Source of the DNA: Halovivax cerinus
GTDB taxonomy: Archaea > Halobacteriota > Halobacteria > Halobacteriales > Natrialbaceae
DNA: 64,000 nucleotides
Assembly (NCBI RefSeq): GCF_024498195.1
Contig: NZ_CP101824.1
Span: 2,480,001 to 2,544,000 of the forward strand
Reading direction: 5' to 3'
In this document: in pieces, positions 2,334-9,632 of the stretch
How the letters are laid out: every line of letters starts with the position of its first letter
How positions within the stretch are numbered: the first letter of the stretch is position 1
Notes under the pieces: model-generated
The model's database searches: none
What the model was told of the DNA's origin: nothing
The model's input: only the letters and a program-made list of their open reading frames with translations
Program-made: the position numbers and the translations under genes

Positions 2334-3197
2334 ATGGCCAGCGACGGGCGCGACGACGATACGCTCACCATCTCCGTGCCGCCCGACGTCGACGACTGGC
2401 TCGACGAAGAGGCGATACGGACGGGGACGTCGCGAGCCGACGTCTGTCGGCGACTCCTGGAAGCGGCCCGCGAGATCGCCGCTGAGGACGGCGCGAGGGC
2501 GGTCGCAGACGCCGAGGAACTGGATTCACTTCGAGCGCAACTCGACGCACAGCGCGAGGAGTTCATCGACCACGTCGAAGACGTCCGCGAGCGCGTCATC
2601 GAGGTCAAACGCGAGGTCGACGAACGAGCACCGGCAGCGCACGCCCACGACGACTACGCACCGCTCGAGCGGGTCGACGCCCTCTCGAACGAGATCGATT
2701 CGCTCGAGGCGAACGTCACCGCGCTCGTTTCAGCGCACGACGATCTCTCGGACCGCGTCGACGACCGATACGAGGCACACGAATCGATCCTCGCCGACGT
2801 GTCGGGAGACGTCGACAGGCTCTCCGATCGGTCGACGGTACTCGCGGGCGCAGTGCTCGAGTTGCGCGACGACCGGGAGACGCTCCTCGAACGGGAACGT
2901 GACCGTGCGGCCGTGGACGAACTGAGAGCGACGGCGAACCGACTCGACGTGAGGCGGGCGGCCTGCGACGAGTGCGGTTCGAGCGTCGATCTCGCACTGC
3001 TCGCGCGGCCCCGCTGTCCACACTGCGGCGCCTCGTTCGCGGACGTCGAGGGGTCGTCTTCGTTCTTCGGTTCCGATACGCTTGTCACCGGCGACCCACC
3101 ACCGCTCCCGGGCCGTACCGGAACGGACGGACCGGATCGAGAGCAACTCGAAGCCGCGGCGAACGACGACTCGGCGATCGGTGGTGACGACCGATGA
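2334..3197 (+). CDS. Ribbon-helix-helix / coiled-coil / zinc-ribbon protein
   Basis: The ATG at 2334 follows a TATATAT stretch and starts a 287-aa protein. Residues 10-45 (TLTISVPPDVDDWLDEEA...) are a CopG-type ribbon-helix-helix. A long charged heptad region of about 150 residues (coiled coil) follows, then a C-terminal zinc ribbon with C211xxC214 and C228xxC231. The architecture suggests a DNA-binding oligomer, perhaps a chromatin or transcription regulator; no target is visible. The frame stays open upstream to 2067 but that part reads as antisense-like arginine/serine sequence, so the internal ATG is preferred. The stop overlaps the next start (ATGA). Confidence 0.75.
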   Translation: MASDGRDDDTLTISVPPDVDDWLDEEAIRTGTSRADVCRRLLEAAREIAAEDGARAVADAEELDSLRAQLDAQREEFIDHVEDVRERVIEVKREVDERAPAAHAHDDYAPLERVDALSNEIDSLEANVTALVSAHDDLSDRVDDRYEAHESILADVSGDVDRLSDRSTVLAGAVLELRDDRETLLERERDRAAVDELRATANRLDVRRAACDECGSSVDLALLARPRCPHCGASFADVEGSSSFFGSDTLVTGDPPPLPGRTGTDGPDREQLEAAANDDSAIGGDDR

Positions 3198-4477: not shown

Positions 4478-5548
4478 ATGACCGAAGAAGATGCAACTGC
4501 GGACGAACCGAACGCGGCCGATCGATTCGCGAAGCTCGAACGAACGGTCGAGGCACTCGCGGATCGCGTGGGGGAACTGGAGACGAACGAGCGATGCGAC
4601 GAAGGCGACGGCGAATCGGCCGGATCGATGACGCGTCGATCCGCGATGGGTACGCTCGGCCTCGCCGGCCTGCTGGGACTGGGTGCGACGACGGCGAGTG
4701 CGGACGCTCAAGGGCAGGTCGGGACGGAGAGCGACCCGCTTCGGGCAGTTCACACCGAGGCCATCATGTCACGATCGACCCTCGATATCGCCGTCGAAGC
4801 GAACAGTGGGCACGCCGGAAACATCGTTTCTGGACACTCGAGTAACGGCGTGGAGGGATCCGTTCGCGGAGTCACCATCGCTGGAGGATGATTCGACGAT
4901 GGGACGGACGCGTTCCCGAACCGGGTGTCGGGCGAGTTCGGTACCATCGGCGGCGGGTTCGACAACGCCGCAGCCACGTACGGATCGACGGTCGCCGGCG
5001 GTGAAGCGAACGTCGCGGACGGATCGACTGCCACCATCTCGGGCGGCGTCCAGAACGAGGCGAGTGGGGCGACTGCGACAGTCGGCGGTGGAAACGAAAA
5101 CGTGGCGAGCGGGGCGGATTCGACGGTCGCCGGTGGAACGCAGAACCAAGCGACCTATCAGTACACCACCGTCTGCGGTGGTCGCTTCGGTGTGGCGAGT
5201 TCGCGCGATGCGACGGTCGGCGGCGGTGCGAAGAACGAGGCCACCGCAACGGGCGCCACCGTATCGGGCGGTGACTCAAACGGTGCCAGTATGGACCTCG
5301 CCACCGTAGCGGGCGGCGATCAGAACGAGGCGAGCGGCGAGGCTGCGGCCGTGGGAGGCGGTGCGTCCAACGTAGCAAGTGGAGAGAGGGCGACAGTCGG
5401 CGGGGGGATCGACAACAAGGCGACCGATAGCGACTCGACCGTCGCGGGCGGCAATTCCAACGAGGCGACCGCTGTCACCTCGACGGTCGCTGGCGGATTA
5501 TCCAATATCGCGGAATCGACTGATGCAACCGTGAGTGGGGGGTTTAGC
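4478..5548 (+). pseudogene. 5' part of a disrupted Tat-exported beta-roll repeat surface protein
   Basis: Starts at the ATG at 4478. Residues 1-50 form an acidic coiled coil, and a twin-arginine signal (RR at 53-54, TRRSAMGTLGLAGLLGLG, then ASADA) follows. An in-frame TGA at 4889 (codon 138) sits where the pattern calls for glycine, giving TIAGG*FDDG. Beyond it the same frame is open to 5551 and encodes thirteen 15-residue repeats of the type ATVGGGxxNxAS, resembling YadA/Hep_Hag head or left-handed beta-roll repeats. The frame breaks at the IS200/IS605 element after GGFS (5548) and resumes at 7444. An ATG at 4628, just before the RR, is an alternative start. Confidence 0.85.
4925..5548 (+). 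repeat. Degenerate 45-nt (15-codon) coding repeats
   Basis: The coding sequence holds tandem 45-nt units encoding x-(A/S)-T-(V/I)-x-G-G-x-x-N-x-A-(S/T)-x-x. Thirteen lie before the IS and about three more after it (7444-7560), so the undisturbed gene had about sixteen. Units diverge at the DNA level but keep the GG, N and A positions. This is protein-level repetition, expected to form one beta-roll turn per unit, and not a CRISPR array. Confidence 0.85.
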
Positions 5549-5701
5549 TGAATTGAGGCGCTAAGCCCCCTTCCTCAGCGAGCGCCGACCGAACGGGAGG
5601 CGCGAGCAGGGAGGGGATACAGTGCCGCACGGTTCTCGAACACAATTCGGTGGCAATCCAATAGACCCACGCAATCGCAATGTTTTTGCAATAGAGTAAC
5701 A

Positions 5702-5711
5702 TAATATTTAT
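5702..5711 (+). promoter_or_regulatory. Probable promoter of tnpA
   Basis: The AT-rich run ATAATATTTATT lies 9-20 nt before the tnpA ATG at 5720, and a second A/T-rich patch (TTTTTGCAATAGAG) lies 12 nt further upstream. Either could serve as TATA box for a leaderless or short-leader transcript. The assignment rests on base composition only. Confidence 0.35.
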
Positions 5712-5719
5712 TGAACCCA

Positions 5720-6124
5720 ATGGAATACGACCTCGACTCGGGAGCGCACTCGACGTTTTCCCTGCACTACCACCTGATACTCACCACGAAGTATCGGCGC
5801 GGAGTGCTAACCGAGGAGCGAACCCAATTCATTCACGAGGTCATCAGCGGGTTCACGGACAACTACGGTGTCGAACTGACGAACCTCGACGGCGAGGACG
5901 ACCATGTATACATCTTGTTCCGAGCGAAACCAACCACAGACCTCGTGAAGTTCATCAACACGGCCAAGGGCGCGACCGCCCGCCGTATCCGCAACGAGTA
6001 CGCGGACGAACTCAAGACCGAACTGTGGGGCGACTCGTTCTGGAACGACTCGTACTGCCTCATCTCGACGGGGCAGGTGTCGCTTGATGTGCTGAAACAG
6101 TACGTCGAGGACCAACGCGAGTAG
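5720..6124 (+). CDS. tnpA: IS200-type Y1 HUH transposase TnpA, HUH motif altered
   Basis: Single-strand DNA transposase that would cut and rejoin the IS ends through a tyrosine. The 134-aa protein shows the family pattern: HYHLILTTKYRR near the N-terminus, the nucleophile region QYVEDQ with Y128, and length typical of IS200/IS605 TnpA. The metal-binding motif, normally H-hydrophobic-H (DHVH), reads D61-H62-V63-Y64 because codon 5909-5911 is TAC and not CAC. Loss of this histidine should impair metal binding and cleavage, so the copy may be inactive or weak. The ATG at 5720 is preferred; a TTG at 5711 in frame is possible. The stop at 6122-6124 lies one base before tnpB. Confidence 0.88.
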   Translation: MEYDLDSGAHSTFSLHYHLILTTKYRRGVLTEERTQFIHEVISGFTDNYGVELTNLDGEDDHVYILFRAKPTTDLVKFINTAKGATARRIRNEYADELKTELWGDSFWNDSYCLISTGQVSLDVLKQYVEDQRE

Positions 6125-6125
6125 A

Positions 6126-7427
6126 ATGTACTACGCCTACAAGTACCGTCTCACGCCGTCCGACGCCCACCGTGAGGAGTTGGACCGCCACCGAGACATC
6201 TGTAGGCAACTCTACAACCACACGCTCTACCGACTCAACGAGTACCAAGACGAACACGGTGAACTACCGTCCATGACCACACTACGGTCGGAACTACCCG
6301 ACCTCAAGACGTGGTGGGACGGCCTCTCCGCCGTGTACTCGAAGGTTCTCCAAACCGTCGTGGAACGACTGTTCGACAACCTCAAAGGACTCTCGGCACT
6401 CAAGAAGAACGGCTACGGCGTCGGTCAACTCAAGTGGAAGCCGCCACGGGAGTTTCGCAGTTTCACGTACAGCCAGTCTGGCTTCAAGCTCGACAAGAAG
6501 GGCGGTCAGACTGTCCTGTCACTCTCGAAACTCGCGGATATACCGATTCGGCTCCACCGCGCCATCCCTGACGACGCCACCGTGAAACAGGTCACGGTCA
6601 AGAAGGAACCGACGGGCGAGTGGTTCGCCACCTTCGGCGTCCAAATGGACCGTGAAGTTCCTGAGCCACCTGAGAATCCCGAGAATTGCGTCGGTATCGA
6701 CCTAGGGATTCTCAAGTACGCTCACGACACCGACGGCACAGCGGTCGGGTCGCTTGACCTCACCGACGAGCGCGAACGCTTGGAACGCGAGCACCGGAAG
6801 CTCTCTAGGAAACAATACGGGTCGAACAACTACGAGAAGCAACGGCGTCGAGTCGCGGAGTGTCACGCCGATCTCCGACGGAAGCGCCGCGACTTCCTGC
6901 ACAAACTCTCGGCGTACTACGCTCGGGAGTACGACCTCGTGGCGGTCGAAGACCTGAACGTGAAGGGGATGATGGAATCGCCGTCGAACAGCCGTACCAC
7001 CGCATCAGCGGCGTGGCGGACGTTCCTCTCGTTGCTCGAATACAAGTGTGAGCGCGAAGGGACGCACTTCGTGGCGGTCAACCCGAGAGGGACGACCAAG
7101 GAGTGCGCGTCATGTGGCGTCTCGACCGAGAAGCCGCTGTGGGTCCGTGAACACTCCTGTCCCGCCTGCGGGTTTGAGGCGGACAGGGACGCGAACGCGG
7201 CGTGGAACATCCTTTCTCGCGGCCTCGAAGACGTAGGAGTGGGATACTCCGAATCAACGCCTGTGGAGACTGCGCTCCCTGTGGATACACCTGTGTCTGC
7301 AAAGCGCGTCGTGGAAGCAGGAAGCCCTATCTGCTCACGGGCGCGAAGCGCCCGTTCGCATGGTCAGCGGGACCGAAGGTCCCGCGCTACCCTCAAGGAG
7401 CGACCGGTGTCAGCCGTGAGCGAGTAG
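6126..7427 (+). CDS. tnpB: TnpB RNA-guided nuclease (IS605 accessory protein)
   Basis: A 433-aa protein of the Cas12 ancestor family that cleaves DNA at sites chosen by an omega-RNA transcribed from the IS right end. The RuvC residues are intact: D192 (GIDLGILKYAHD), E275 (VAVEDLNVKG) and D355 (DRDANAAW). The zinc finger C327xxC330...C345xxC348 is also complete. After the catalytic core comes a tail of about 65 residues, in which residues 402-421 (Arg/Ser-rich) are encoded by DNA forming two strong hairpins. Unlike TnpA, nothing essential is missing. The 3' end of the gene overlaps the predicted guide RNA. Confidence 0.92.
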   Translation: MYYAYKYRLTPSDAHREELDRHRDICRQLYNHTLYRLNEYQDEHGELPSMTTLRSELPDLKTWWDGLSAVYSKVLQTVVERLFDNLKGLSALKKNGYGVGQLKWKPPREFRSFTYSQSGFKLDKKGGQTVLSLSKLADIPIRLHRAIPDDATVKQVTVKKEPTGEWFATFGVQMDREVPEPPENPENCVGIDLGILKYAHDTDGTAVGSLDLTDERERLEREHRKLSRKQYGSNNYEKQRRRVAECHADLRRKRRDFLHKLSAYYAREYDLVAVEDLNVKGMMESPSNSRTTASAAWRTFLSLLEYKCEREGTHFVAVNPRGTTKECASCGVSTEKPLWVREHSCPACGFEADRDANAAWNILSRGLEDVGVGYSESTPVETALPVDTPVSAKRVVEAGSPICSRARSARSHGQRDRRSRATLKERPVSAVSE

Positions 7428-7443
7428 GGTAGGGTAGTTCACT
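7320..7443 (+). ncRNA. Probable omega-RNA (reRNA) of TnpB
   Basis: In IS200/IS605 elements the guide RNA runs through the 3' part of tnpB to the right end and continues into flanking DNA, which supplies the guide. Here the predicted scaffold includes the twin hairpins (7337-7385) and the CTACCCT/AGGGTAG stem near the right end. The guide would begin at 7444 with AACACCGCGAGTGGTACC, i.e. the repeat region of the interrupted gene. The 5' boundary is a guess. Confidence 0.45.
7337..7385 (+). repeat. Twin GAA-capped hairpins inside the 3' end of tnpB
   Basis: Two perfect 8-bp stems, each with a GAA loop, stand 11 nt apart: ACGGGCGC-GAA-GCGCCCGT (7337-7355) and GCGGGACC-GAA-GGTCCCGC (7367-7385). 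They lie in frame in the tnpB tail and in the region expected to be omega-RNA scaffold. From general memory of related haloarchaeal TnpB tails this stretch looks like an insertion, but that needs alignment. Confidence 0.75.
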
Positions 7444-8304
7444 AACACCGCGAGTGGTACCGGCGCAACAATCGGCGGTGGTTCGTTAGGCGAAGCGTCT
7501 GGCTCCTATGCGACCGTCCCCGGCGGCTACTCGAACGAAGCGACGGGAGAGAGCAGCGTTGCAGTTGGTCACCAGGCGCAGGCATACCACGACCACACGT
7601 TCGTCTGGTCGGACGGCAACGGTGACTCCCTATCGGATCCGTTTTCGTCGGGGGACGGGATGAACGGGTCGGGCGTCACCGGCGCGGAGACGTTCCACGT
7701 CAAAGCGACCGGCGGAGTCCGATTCATCACCGGCGGCGGAACGACCTACATTTCGGGCGGCAGCACCGGCTGGTCGACCACGTCGACGCGGTCGGCCAAG
7801 ACCAACGTGGAACCGGTCGAGCCGTCGGCCGTTCTCGAGGGGGTCGAGTCGATGCCGGTCGCGACCTGGGAGTACACGGGGGACGACGGGGACGGCGCCG
7901 GTACGACACACATCGGCCCGATGGCCGAGGACTTCCACGAGGCGTTCGACGTGGGGGACAGCGATCGACACATCAACTCGATCAACGCCGACGGCGTCGC
8001 GCTCGCCGCGATCAAGGGCCTCGCGGAGCGCCTCGACGAACGCGAGGAGCGTCTCGACGACCAGCGAGGTCGACTCGACGAGCTCGAAGCCGAGAACGAG
8101 GCACTACGGGAGCGCCTGGACGCGCTGGAAGCAAGACGGCTGGCGGCTGACGGGGGTGACGCTGATTCGGGCATCGACGGGGGTGACACTGATTCGGGCA
8201 TCGATGAAGTCGACGACCCGGGAACCGAGGGAGACGACGGCGCGGCTGCGGGTGTGTCGAAGACGGTCGCGGGTTCCGAATCCGCCGGCGGTGAGGTGCG
8301 GTGA
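7444..8304 (+). pseudogene. 3' part of the disrupted surface protein, with S74-type chaperone domain
   Basis: Continues the repeats (NTASGTGATIGGG..., about three more units), then a short linker with VAVGHQAQAYHDHTFVWSDG. Next comes a domain typical of tail-spike/peptidase S74 intramolecular chaperones: SAKTNVEPVEPSAVLEGVES, PVATWEY, GPMAEDFHEAFDVGDSD, NADGVALAAIKGL. It is followed by a heptad coiled coil (LAERLDEREERLDDQ...) and an acidic tail. In phages such a domain trimerises the fibre and may cut itself off; the usual Ser-Asp at the cut site is not clear here. In the empty-site frame the whole protein would be about 640 residues. The end overlaps the next start (GTGA). Confidence 0.85.
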
Positions 8305-9632
8305 CGGCTCGTCTCGCCTGTGCTTCCCTGGTCCTCGTCGCGGTGATCGCGCTGGCCGCTCTTGGGACGGGAGCGGTCGCGGCGGAGCCCGACCCGGCCT
8401 GCGCTGGATCGGGTGGCGGTGCGATGTTCGTCGCGGACTCCGGGTTCACCGTCGCGTACAACGACACCCAGCCGATGCCGGAGGACGGTCCGTTCCTGGG
8501 CCCGGAGACCATCCGATTTCGGAACGTGACCTTCTCGTCGAACGCCTCGACGGTTCTCGGTGTCGAGAACGGAACAGGTCCAACCACGTGCCTGTTCGAT
8601 ATCGACGCGACGAACGGGTCGGTTCTGATCGCCCCGGACGACGAGGCGAACGTGAGCGTCGACGGAACCGTCCCCGCGCTGTCGCTCTCTGCGGTGACGT
8701 ACGGGAGCGGGAGTGGGGATATCGCGTACGACGCGGCCGCTTCGTGGAACCTGACGCTCCTCGAGACCGGTCTCGAGTCCGGGGCCGACGTCGACGCCGT
8801 GGCCGAGAACGGGTCGACGCTCGCCTCCGGAACCGTCACGGAGAACGGGACACTGCCCCTGGCGTTGCCGGGCGGGACGAACACCGTTGATTTGCAGGAG
8901 AATTCCGGTGGTGGCGGCGGATTCCTGCCGCCTCCGCCCCCGGACGACGACGGGTCCCCGCCGTTCGACGTCACCGCGTTGACACTCGACCACGGCGACG
9001 TCGGCGTCGGTGAGCAGGTTGCCGTGACCATCGAGGTCGAGAACGTCGGCGAGAGCGATGGCACCTTCACCGGGACGCTCACCGCCGACGGCGAACGGGT
9101 CGATTCGGGGTCGATCGCCGTCGAGTCGAACGGCGCGGGCACGCTCACCCTCACGACGACGTTCGACGAACCCGGCACCTACGAACTCGCCGTCGACGGC
9201 GAGCCGGCCGGATCGGTCACCGTCACGGACGAGTCTGCACTCTCGATACCGGACGCATCGATCGAGCCATCGGACGTCGATCCGGGTGAGACGGTTCGGA
9301 TCACGGTCACCGTCGCTGCCGGAGAAACGGGTGTCGATCGGACCCTCGTTCTCTCGGTCGACGGGGACGAAGTCGATTCGGCGTCGGTGTCCCTCTCTCC
9401 GGACGAGTCGAGGACCGTTACCTTCGAACACCGGTTCGATTCGACGGGCTCGAAGACCGTGTCCGTCGACGGGGTAGACGTCGGTTCGGTGACGGTGGCC
9501 CACTCCGACGAGGGAGCCGGCGGTCCGCCGCTCGTGATCGTCGCATCGGTTCTCGGCGTCCTCCTCGCCGTCGGTATCGGTAGTCTCTACTGGTACGATC
9601 CCGAGAGATTCGCCGGCGTGTTGAATCGGTGA
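8301..9632 (+). CDS. Secreted CARDB-domain surface protein with C-terminal membrane anchor
   Basis: The GTG start at 8301 overlaps the stop of the disrupted gene, so the two were probably co-translated. The 443-aa protein has a Sec-type signal (residues 5-30, ending GAVAAEP), an N-terminal domain with several N-x-S/T sites, and a Gly/Pro hinge (SGGGGGFLPPPPPDDDG, near 205). Two CARDB-like beta-sandwich modules (about 220-305 and 315-400) follow. One C-terminal transmembrane helix (PPLVIVASVLGVLLAVGIG) ends in a short cytoplasmic tail. It should sit on the cell surface. The function is unknown, presumably adhesion or an accessory to the upstream fibre. Confidence 0.78.
   Translation: MTARLACASLVLVAVIALAALGTGAVAAEPDPACAGSGGGAMFVADSGFTVAYNDTQPMPEDGPFLGPETIRFRNVTFSSNASTVLGVENGTGPTTCLFDIDATNGSVLIAPDDEANVSVDGTVPALSLSAVTYGSGSGDIAYDAAASWNLTLLETGLESGADVDAVAENGSTLASGTVTENGTLPLALPGGTNTVDLQENSGGGGGFLPPPPPDDDGSPPFDVTALTLDHGDVGVGEQVAVTIEVENVGESDGTFTGTLTADGERVDSGSIAVESNGAGTLTLTTTFDEPGTYELAVDGEPAGSVTVTDESALSIPDASIEPSDVDPGETVRITVTVAAGETGVDRTLVLSVDGDEVDSASVSLSPDESRTVTFEHRFDSTGSKTVSVDGVDVGSVTVAHSDEGAGGPPLVIVASVLGVLLAVGIGSLYWYDPERFAGVLNR

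What the first reader, a model, noticed from the sequence alone, without database searches (positions are those of the whole stretch)
4478..8304. Archaeal beta-roll fibre with an S74-type chaperone domain, broken by both a stop codon and an IS
The sequence shows a Tat leader after a coiled coil, about sixteen 15-residue ATVxGGxxNxAS repeats, a tail-spike-type intramolecular chaperone domain and a trimer-like coiled coil. The closest known designs are phage tail fibres and bacterial trimeric autotransporters. An archaeal exported protein with this plan is unusual and suggests a surface fibre of viral or bacterial origin. Two independent lesions (TGA at 4889, IS at 5549) mean it has been dispensable in this strain.
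Basis: partly seen in the sequence, partly recalled or inferred. Interest (0 to 1): 0.7.

Follow-up and report, generated by a model that had tools for sequence, protein, structure and literature searches.

The report
Broken archaeal surface fibre, intact partner
A salt-loving archaeon carries a damaged gene for a phage-like surface fibre; intact relatives show that the fibre normally comes paired with a membrane protein that probably holds it on the cell, and distant relatives of that partner occur in virus-like elements.

Summary
Window 4478-8304 is a haloarchaeal fibre gene: coiled coil, twin-arginine leader, sixteen UspA1-type 15-residue repeats, an S74 chaperone domain with the Ser-Lys pair, and a C-terminal coiled coil. 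It is cut by an in-frame TGA (4889) and an IS200/IS605 element (5549-7443). Intact one-piece relatives exist, so the two ends belong together. S74 domains of this kind occur in 32 of 392 genomes of the order: patchy, not unique.

The fibre stop overlaps the start of an open gene (8301-9632): signal peptide, a ~170-residue domain without a named family, two CARDB domains, membrane helix. In 38 S74 loci the partner domain is present exactly when the fibre has a conserved 'QGQ(I/V)GT..DPL..LY' stretch after its leader (11 of 11, against 0 of 27). Passengers change (with or without S74) and anchors change (membrane helix; a histidine kinase in three related genomes). Nine loci with a weak partner match carry a protein related to lemon-shaped virus LSV-48N.

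Best reading: a fibre held at its base by a membrane partner. Docking is inferred; a covariation test gave no support for it.

The parts
4478..4888 (+). 5' fragment of the fibre gene: coiled coil (about 4511-4597), Tat-type leader with twin arginine at 4634-4639 and ASA at 4694-4702, then the conserved header (4700-4786)
   Evidence: translation; header profile hit at window 4700-4786, E 4.1e-14; coiled-coil register by a simple heptad count
4889..4891 (+). in-frame TGA; relatives have a sense codon here (by eye)
   Evidence: relatives
4892..5548 (+). 14 UspA1-type beta-roll repeats
   Evidence: Pfam PF18792 E 4.4e-20; PDB 3pr7 UspA1 E 5.6e-28; periodicity
5549..7443 (+). IS200/IS605-type insertion with tnpA (5711-6124) and tnpB (6126-7427)
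   Evidence: Pfam; ends by comparison with own-genome copies, to within a few bases
7444..7782 (+). last two beta-roll repeats and the neck before S74
   Evidence: translation, repeat positions
7783..7947 (+). S74 / intramolecular chaperone domain; Ser at 7783-7785 and Lys at 7798-7800 form the conserved S-x4-K pair
   Evidence: Pfam PF13884, best stretch 7789-7947; alignments A1 and A5; fold matches
7978..8154 (+). C-terminal coiled-coil helix
   Evidence: AlphaFold helix 179-237 of P0001, pLDDT blocks 84-98 up to residue 240
8301..8304 (+). GTGA: fibre stop overlaps partner start by 4 bases
   Evidence: same overlap in L034
8301..9632 (+). partner gene, open frame, 443 aa: signal peptide (by eye), partner domain (8388-8915), two CARDB stretches (best 8982-9233), C-terminal membrane helix (about 9519-9590, by eye)
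   Evidence: Pfam CARDB E 6.3e-10, 2 stretches; alignments A2, A3; profile hits

Best explanation
The locus is a decayed copy of a two-gene surface-fibre unit. Gene 1 (now in three pieces) made a fibre that folds in the cytoplasm as a trimer, helped by its C-terminal S74 domain. That domain then cuts itself off at the Ser of the S-x4-K pair, and the folded fibre leaves by the Tat pathway. The mature base of the fibre begins with the header stretch (QGQ-GT-DPL-LY), the shaft is a UspA1-like beta-roll, and the outer end does the binding. Gene 2 makes a membrane-anchored surface protein whose N-terminal domain holds the base of the fibre on the cell. Passenger and anchor differ between species; in three related genomes the anchor is a histidine kinase. 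Shown here: domain make-up, the two lesions, one-piece relatives, linkage of header and partner domain, overlapping genes, changing anchors and passengers, absence of the pair at this place in congeners. Inferred: trimer, self-cleavage, Tat use, docking through the header, adhesive function.
For: Domains and repeats. Ser and Lys of the pair are invariant in the 12 haloarchaeal rows of A1; in A5 (23 rows: window plus 22 of 34 stop-free stretches) Lys is invariant and Ser at 90% or more. The spacing equals S578/K583 of MYRF (PMC3742443, passages). AlphaFold: residues 111-240 of P0001 have block pLDDT 77-98. The four best VIA matches are the four known chaperone structures 7dc3, 3gw6, 3gud, 4uw8, Z 5.4-5.8; the next is 4.2. 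Foldseek best 7dc3, E 4.7e-3, prob 1.00. Linkage: header and partner both in 11 of 38 S74 loci, neither in the other 27. Header hits at E 1e-5 or better: 28 genes, 2 of which seem from their coordinates to run off contig ends; of the other 26, 24 have a partner on the same strand within 10 kb (one of them, G217, a weak partner). Strong partners (E 1e-30 or better): 20 of 23 within 10 kb of a header gene. In 11 of 20 pairs examined, fibre stop and partner start overlap or lie within 2 bases. A genome not used for the models, G414, has the pair adjacent.
Against: Header and partner distances do not correlate over 19 pairs (r 0.04, p 0.31; r 0.02, p 0.41). The Tat signal and the partner do (r 0.43, p 0.0004; r 0.44, p 0.0002), and the 40 residues after the header do weakly (r 0.15, p 0.046). 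So docking through the header has no covariation support and contact with the leader is possible. The header model was built from loci found through S74 or the partner, so most of the linkage count is not independent; G414 is the one clean new case. Exceptions: G004 (header and partner in different places, L205 and L140), G281 (remnant, L204), G400 (partner alone, L223), G082 (6.7-kb contig). In 9 of the 20 pairs the genes are 140 bases or more apart, in L142 with other genes between. Twelve divergent S74 stretches were left out of A5 and some of them lack the Ser-Lys pair by eye, for example L181 and L182; L102 lacks it too. The partner model was too poor to use (pLDDT 45). No experiment.
Confidence: 0.55

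Rival explanations
1. The partner is a biogenesis helper, not an anchor: a membrane protein that assists export or trimer assembly of the fibre, as the lipoprotein SadB is said to do for the trimeric autotransporter SadA.
For: Genes overlap or touch in 11 of 20 pairs; SadA precedent (PMC3953254, title and start of abstract in a search listing; the name SadB is recalled); Tat-signal and partner distances correlate.
Against: Partner domain is fused to a 7TM histidine kinase in L097-L099 and, as a weak match, to the LSV-48N-like protein of virus-like elements, odd for a mere assembly factor.
Confidence: 0.15
2. The fibre anchors itself: the leader is not cleaved, the coiled coil stays in the cytoplasm and the leader helix holds the fibre in the membrane; the partner is a separate surface protein.
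For: Long n-region with a coiled coil before the RR; leader-partner correlation.
Against: Signal-peptidase-like small-residue sites lie directly before the header in most of the 19 rows, by eye; tight linkage to an anchored partner is then unexplained.
Confidence: 0.13
3. The pair is a relic of a virus: the receptor-binding module of an integrated lemon-shaped (spindle) virus.
For: Nine of the ten weak-partner loci fetched carry a long protein related to LSV-48N CDS0012; in L225 and L226 a Tat-leader protein with a similar motif sits directly before it.
Against: Window neighbours are TFS, a CopG-like protein and a Dna2-like helicase; none of nine LSV-48N proteins hits the window at E 1e-4; the window partner has no match in 50,697 phage records, and a pattern scan of IMG/VR found no relative.
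Confidence: 0.07
4. The pair is a contact sensor: the fibre binds a surface or cell and the partner passes the signal inward, directly when it is a kinase, otherwise through another protein.
For: The L097 partner has HisKA_7TM (E 3.4e-12) and HATPase_c (E 4.3e-13) over their cut-offs, PAS and HisKA under theirs; L098 and L099 are closely similar in translation.
Against: Only three related genomes of one genus have the fusion; L096 of the same genus lacks the kinase part; the window partner ends after one membrane helix.
Confidence: 0.1

Closest known systems
Peptidase_S74 / intramolecular chaperone (K1F endosialidase, T5 pb1, GA-1 neck appendage, MYRF)
   Same: Pfam match over cut-off, S-x4-K pair, C-terminal helix, fold matches
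   Different: On a Tat-leader archaeal protein encoded with a membrane partner; no virion genes found beside it
UspA1 / YadA-type trimeric autotransporter heads
   Same: 15-residue GGxxNxAS repeats; PDB 3pr7 E 5.6e-28
   Different: No barrel anchor family at the C-terminus; Tat-type leader; S74 end instead
'Tail fiber domain-containing protein' on plasmids of Halalkaliarchaeum, Allomeiothermus silvanus and Deinococcus
   Same: Match spans the last repeats and S74, 32-42% identity
   Different: Leader, header and partner not examined in those records
Haloferax lemon-shaped virus LSV-48N structural region (PP151251)
   Same: CDS0012 is related, over 187 to 540 residues, to the part behind a weak partner domain in nine virus-like loci
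   Different: The CDS0012 match begins past its first ~380 residues; no Tat-leader fibre was seen by eye in the 12.3 kb of LSV-48N read
SadA-SadB (trimeric autotransporter plus membrane lipoprotein)
   Same: Fibre with a dedicated membrane partner (search listing, and recall)
   Different: No sequence comparison made

Membership tests
Peptidase_S74 (PF13884) | profile match over the curated cut-off | tested here: met
   38.1 bits, cut-off 22, E 2e-9
Peptidase_S74 (PF13884) | Ser-Lys pair, spacing as in MYRF S578/K583 | tested here: met
   S114 and K119 of P0001; reference spacing from PMC3742443
Peptidase_S74 (PF13884) | chaperone fold | tested here: met
   top four VIA matches are the known chaperones, Z 5.4-5.8, rmsd 2.9-3.9, 83-109 residues aligned; Z is moderate; Foldseek prob 1.00 to 7dc3, E 4.7e-3
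Peptidase_S74 (PF13884) | trimerisation and self-cleavage | not testable with these tools
   needs protein
UspA1/YadA-like trimeric autotransporter | beta-roll head repeats | tested here: met
   PF18792 E 4.4e-20; 3pr7 E 5.6e-28
UspA1/YadA-like trimeric autotransporter | C-terminal membrane barrel anchor | tested here: not met
   the C-terminal part has S74 and a coiled coil; no barrel anchor family among Pfam matches up to E 1
Tat substrate | twin-arginine motif, hydrophobic stretch, small-residue cleavage site | tested here: met
   read by eye in the window and 18 other pairs; no signal-peptide predictor on hand
virion gene of a halovirus | lies in a virus gene cluster | tested here: not met
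   neighbours TFS, CopG-like protein, helicase; nine LSV-48N proteins gave no hit in the window
IS200/IS605 | Y1 transposase plus TnpB | tested here: met
   PF01797 E 1.3e-37; PF01385 E 6.8e-25

The most novel reading that the evidence does not exclude
The header stretch and the partner domain are the two halves of a general plug-and-socket display system, shared by haloarchaeal cells and lemon-shaped-virus-like elements. Any Tat-exported trimeric fibre with the plug can be mounted on any anchor with the socket: a membrane helix, a sortase-type tail, a virion protein, or a sensor kinase that reports what the fibre touches. The window copy is one such unit, gained as a two-gene cassette and then broken.
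Probability: 0.35. Interest if true: 0.8.

Novelty: new variant of a known kind. Interest (0 to 1): 0.58.

Why it matters
S74-matured fibres are known from phages, eCIS particles and MYRF. Here they appear as probably exported surface proteins of haloarchaea with a dedicated membrane partner. The partner's N-terminal domain matched no family in Pfam (E up to 1), NCBIfam or PADLOC (E up to 0.01), and in PHROGs the protein's best E was 0.65. If the pair works as proposed, it gives archaea a modular way to show trimeric fibres without an outer membrane, a testable route by which a fibre could feed a sensor kinase, and a bridge between cell-surface fibres and lemon-shaped archaeal viruses.

Tried and rejected
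Programmed stop read-through: rejected; relatives have a sense codon at the TGA position by eye, and the gene is also cut by the IS. Two unrelated genes at the two ends: rejected by one-frame relatives. Whole locus as a provirus: not supported. Partner fold: a single-sequence model of 185 residues had pLDDT 45 and was not used. Partner profile against PDB sequences: best E 0.021, a designed protein. S74 profile A1 against PDB sequences: three matches, none an S74 entry. Pattern scans of IMG/VR with three partner-type proteins found no relative, nor did P0001. The IMG/VR scan with A1 gave 41 S74 loci; I looked at base composition for the 41, the S74 stretch of 30 and the gene list of one (L163); none was shown to be haloarchaeal. 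For A5, 22 of 34 stop-free stretches (5, 29) were given; the 12 left out were the more divergent ones. Covariation of header and partner: no signal. Phylum draw: partner profile in 2 of 196 genomes, S74 profile in 1 of 196, own genome included, so nothing outside the window's family. Partner against plasmids: only CARDB-region matches, 20 of 27 records listed; the L137 partner had none. Papers: eight searches listed no paper with a title or abstract start on haloarchaeal S74 fibres with this partner; listings were cut, and the library holds open-licence PMC papers only, so this is weak. The name of the organism was not established.
Full report
What is in the window. The 5' part (4478-4888) reads as a coiled coil, a twin-arginine leader and a short conserved stretch, then stops at an in-frame TGA. 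The frame goes on through 14 repeats of 15 residues to 5548, where an IS200/IS605 element with tnpA and tnpB begins. After the element two more repeats, the S74 domain and a coiled coil follow to the stop at 8304. The repeats match the Moraxella adhesin UspA1 (PDB 3pr7, E 5.6e-28; Pfam PF18792, E 4.4e-20). S74 is over its Pfam cut-off. In the predicted model of the 3' part, residues 111-240 (S74 and a long C-terminal helix) have block pLDDT 77-98; the first 100 residues are below 50 and say nothing. The four best structural matches are the four solved chaperones of this kind (MYRF, K1F, GA-1, T5), at moderate Z 5.4 to 5.8, the next match 4.2.

Relatives. A profile of the S74 part (A1, 12 rows) finds 41 places in 32 of 392 genomes of the order. 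I fetched 8 to 20 kb around 40 of the 41; the one left out is a fragment at a contig end (G054:C39). By eye the relatives fall into kinds: with coiled coil, Tat leader and header (L034, L035, L040, L088, L090, L092, L096-L099, like the window); behind a T4 gp19-type tube gene (L036, L037, L039, L079, L087, L091 by tblastn; Pfam run on L037 only, E 6.5e-29), mostly with a phage-fibre-like N-terminus, L036 with a Tat-like leader instead; with another N-terminus (L032, L033, L094, L105); leaderless (L022, L038, L086); and others, some with a Tat-like leader but no header (L082, L089, L095, L101, L102). Bacterial S74 proteins, some with repeats, are also related. In the 12 rows of A1 the Ser and Lys of the pair are invariant; L102 lacks the pair by eye.

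The partner. The fibre stop overlaps the start of an open 443-aa gene, 8301-9632, by four bases (GTGA), as in L034. Its N-terminal domain has no match in Pfam, and two CARDB stretches follow; two NCBIfam matches at E 0.007-0.009 lie elsewhere in the protein and far under their cut-offs. A profile of this domain (A3, 11 rows) finds 31 of 392 genomes at E 1e-5. In 37 S74 loci plus the window, header and partner are both present in 11 and both absent in 27 (Fisher p 8e-10; not corrected for relatedness, and L097-L099 are close relatives). Searching the header alone (A4, 21 rows) over the same 392 genomes gives 25 hits at E 1e-5 or better, and a family draw of 146 genomes adds three in genomes not in the first draw. 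Of these 28, two (G430, G446) seem from their coordinates to run off contig ends; I did not fetch them. Of the other 26, 24 have a partner on the same strand within 10 kb, one of them (G217) a weak partner. The two exceptions are G281, where a header gene seems fused to a piece like the partner's CARDB part (L204, by eye), and G004, where header (L205) and partner (L140) lie apart. From the partner side, 20 of 23 strong hits (E 1e-30 or better) are within 10 kb of a header gene; the others are G082 (6.7-kb contig), G004 and G400. The header rows came from loci found through S74 or the partner, so this is mostly a statement that headers without partners are rare. G414 is the one new genome where both searches hit side by side.

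What changes and what stays. Passengers behind the same leader and header include S74 beta-rolls, beta-rolls without S74 (L136 second gene, L138, L139 second pair, by eye), a C1q/BclA-like end (L137; C1q E 3.2e-4, 21.3 bits, under the cut-off 23.7) and others without a convincing Pfam match. Partner C-termini, by eye, include a membrane helix (window, L040, L137, L138 and others), a PGF-CTERM-like tail (L092, L143, L224; motif recalled), a short repeated tail without a helix (L035), and a kinase (L097: HisKA_7TM and HATPase_c over cut-off, PAS and HisKA under; L098 and L099 by similarity of translation). L096 has the stalk but no kinase. In 20 pairs examined, 11 overlap or lie within 2 bases, 9 are 140 bases or more apart; in L092, not among the 20, the partner lies upstream.

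Link to viruses. Of 20 weak partner hits (E 1.2e-23 to 4.5e-6) I fetched ten (L144-L151, L225, L226). Nine (not L151) carry, behind the weak partner domain, 187 to 540 residues related to CDS0012 of the Haloferax lemon-shaped virus LSV-48N. In L225 and L226 a Tat-leader protein with a GT..(D/E)(D/E)PLEAIYVD motif lies directly before it; similar ones lie near the partner in L146, L147, L149 and L150 by eye; in L144 and L145 I saw none. The header model itself passes E 1e-3 only in L145 (a different frame, probably chance), L150 and L225. In LSV-48N no such leader protein was seen by eye in the half of the genome read, and the related part of CDS0012 begins past residue 378. The virus paper (PMC12714723, passages only) reports 13 LSV-48N proteins found by mass spectrometry; I could not tell whether CDS0012 is one. 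One copy series in G276 lies at 14,077-base steps on contig C4.

History of the locus. In three congeners (G001, G002, G004) the neighbours TFS and helicase are next to each other, and in G003 another gene lies between; none of three window pieces (two fibre ends, partner) has a match in the stretches read. So the pair was gained by, or survived only in, the window lineage. The own genome keeps another leader-plus-partner pair with open frames at 3.266 Mb (L137) and a leaderless S74 paralogue at 2.377 Mb (L022), so loss of this fibre may be tolerated.

How it probably works. Shown: domains, lesions, linkage, swapping. From known families: S74 domains drive trimer formation and cut themselves off at the Ser (T5 pb1, PMC4690869; MYRF, PMC3742443; passages read), and Tat exports folded proteins (recalled). 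Inferred: the fibre folds inside, loses its chaperone, is exported, and its base with the header is held by the partner. Against the last step: header and partner distances do not correlate over 19 pairs, while leader and partner do, and the 40 residues after the header weakly. A constant plug would give the first result; the second may be shared descent, or contact with the leader. S74 genes in eCIS loci are known (PMC8213781 and PMC12923769, passages), so an S74 fibre alone is not new.

Verdict. The fibre is a new variant of a known kind. The pair with its unnamed partner domain is the more interesting part, and the plug-and-socket reading is open.

Noticed in passing
L022:6883-8070 (own genome about 2.377 Mb), L038:8690-9877, L086:5099-6511: Leaderless S74 beta-roll paralogues that begin MSGE.STIGGG/STVGGG, close to the point where the window frame resumes after its TGA; L022 and L038 share a neighbour gene by eye.
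   Followed up: partly
L036, L037, L039, L079, L087, L091: S74 gene next to a lone T4 gp19-type tail-tube gene, in L037, L079, L087 and L039 followed by a small Tat-leader protein or a relative of it; no other tail genes were looked for.
   Followed up: partly
L097:9486-12332, L098, L099: Partner domain fused to a 7TM histidine kinase beside an S74 fibre gene.
   Followed up: partly
L035:8064-8230, 4894-5055, 3051-3191; also L037, L079, L087: A C-terminal ~45-residue module (DAI.DWRSGEIGTDLLRDVI.AWRSG) shared by the L035 partner, two neighbours and the small proteins beside tube-type S74 loci.
   Followed up: no
G276 C4 8832, 22909, 36986, 60795 and C1 3298115 (L148): Five copies of the weak partner match; three lie at exact 14,077-base steps, as in a concatemer or a circular element read several times.
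   Followed up: no
window 7327-7443; L044, L046, L047, L048: Short stretches like the right end of the IS (78-93% identity) occur at other places of the genome.
   Followed up: no
L021:5832-6896 (own genome 2.254 Mb): A third S74 protein of a different make-up (354 aa, no GGxxN repeats by eye), the strongest S74 hit of the genome (E 4.7e-17).
   Followed up: no
L204:6260-7141 (G281): Apparent remnant of a pair: header gene end fused to a piece like the partner's CARDB part.
   Followed up: partly
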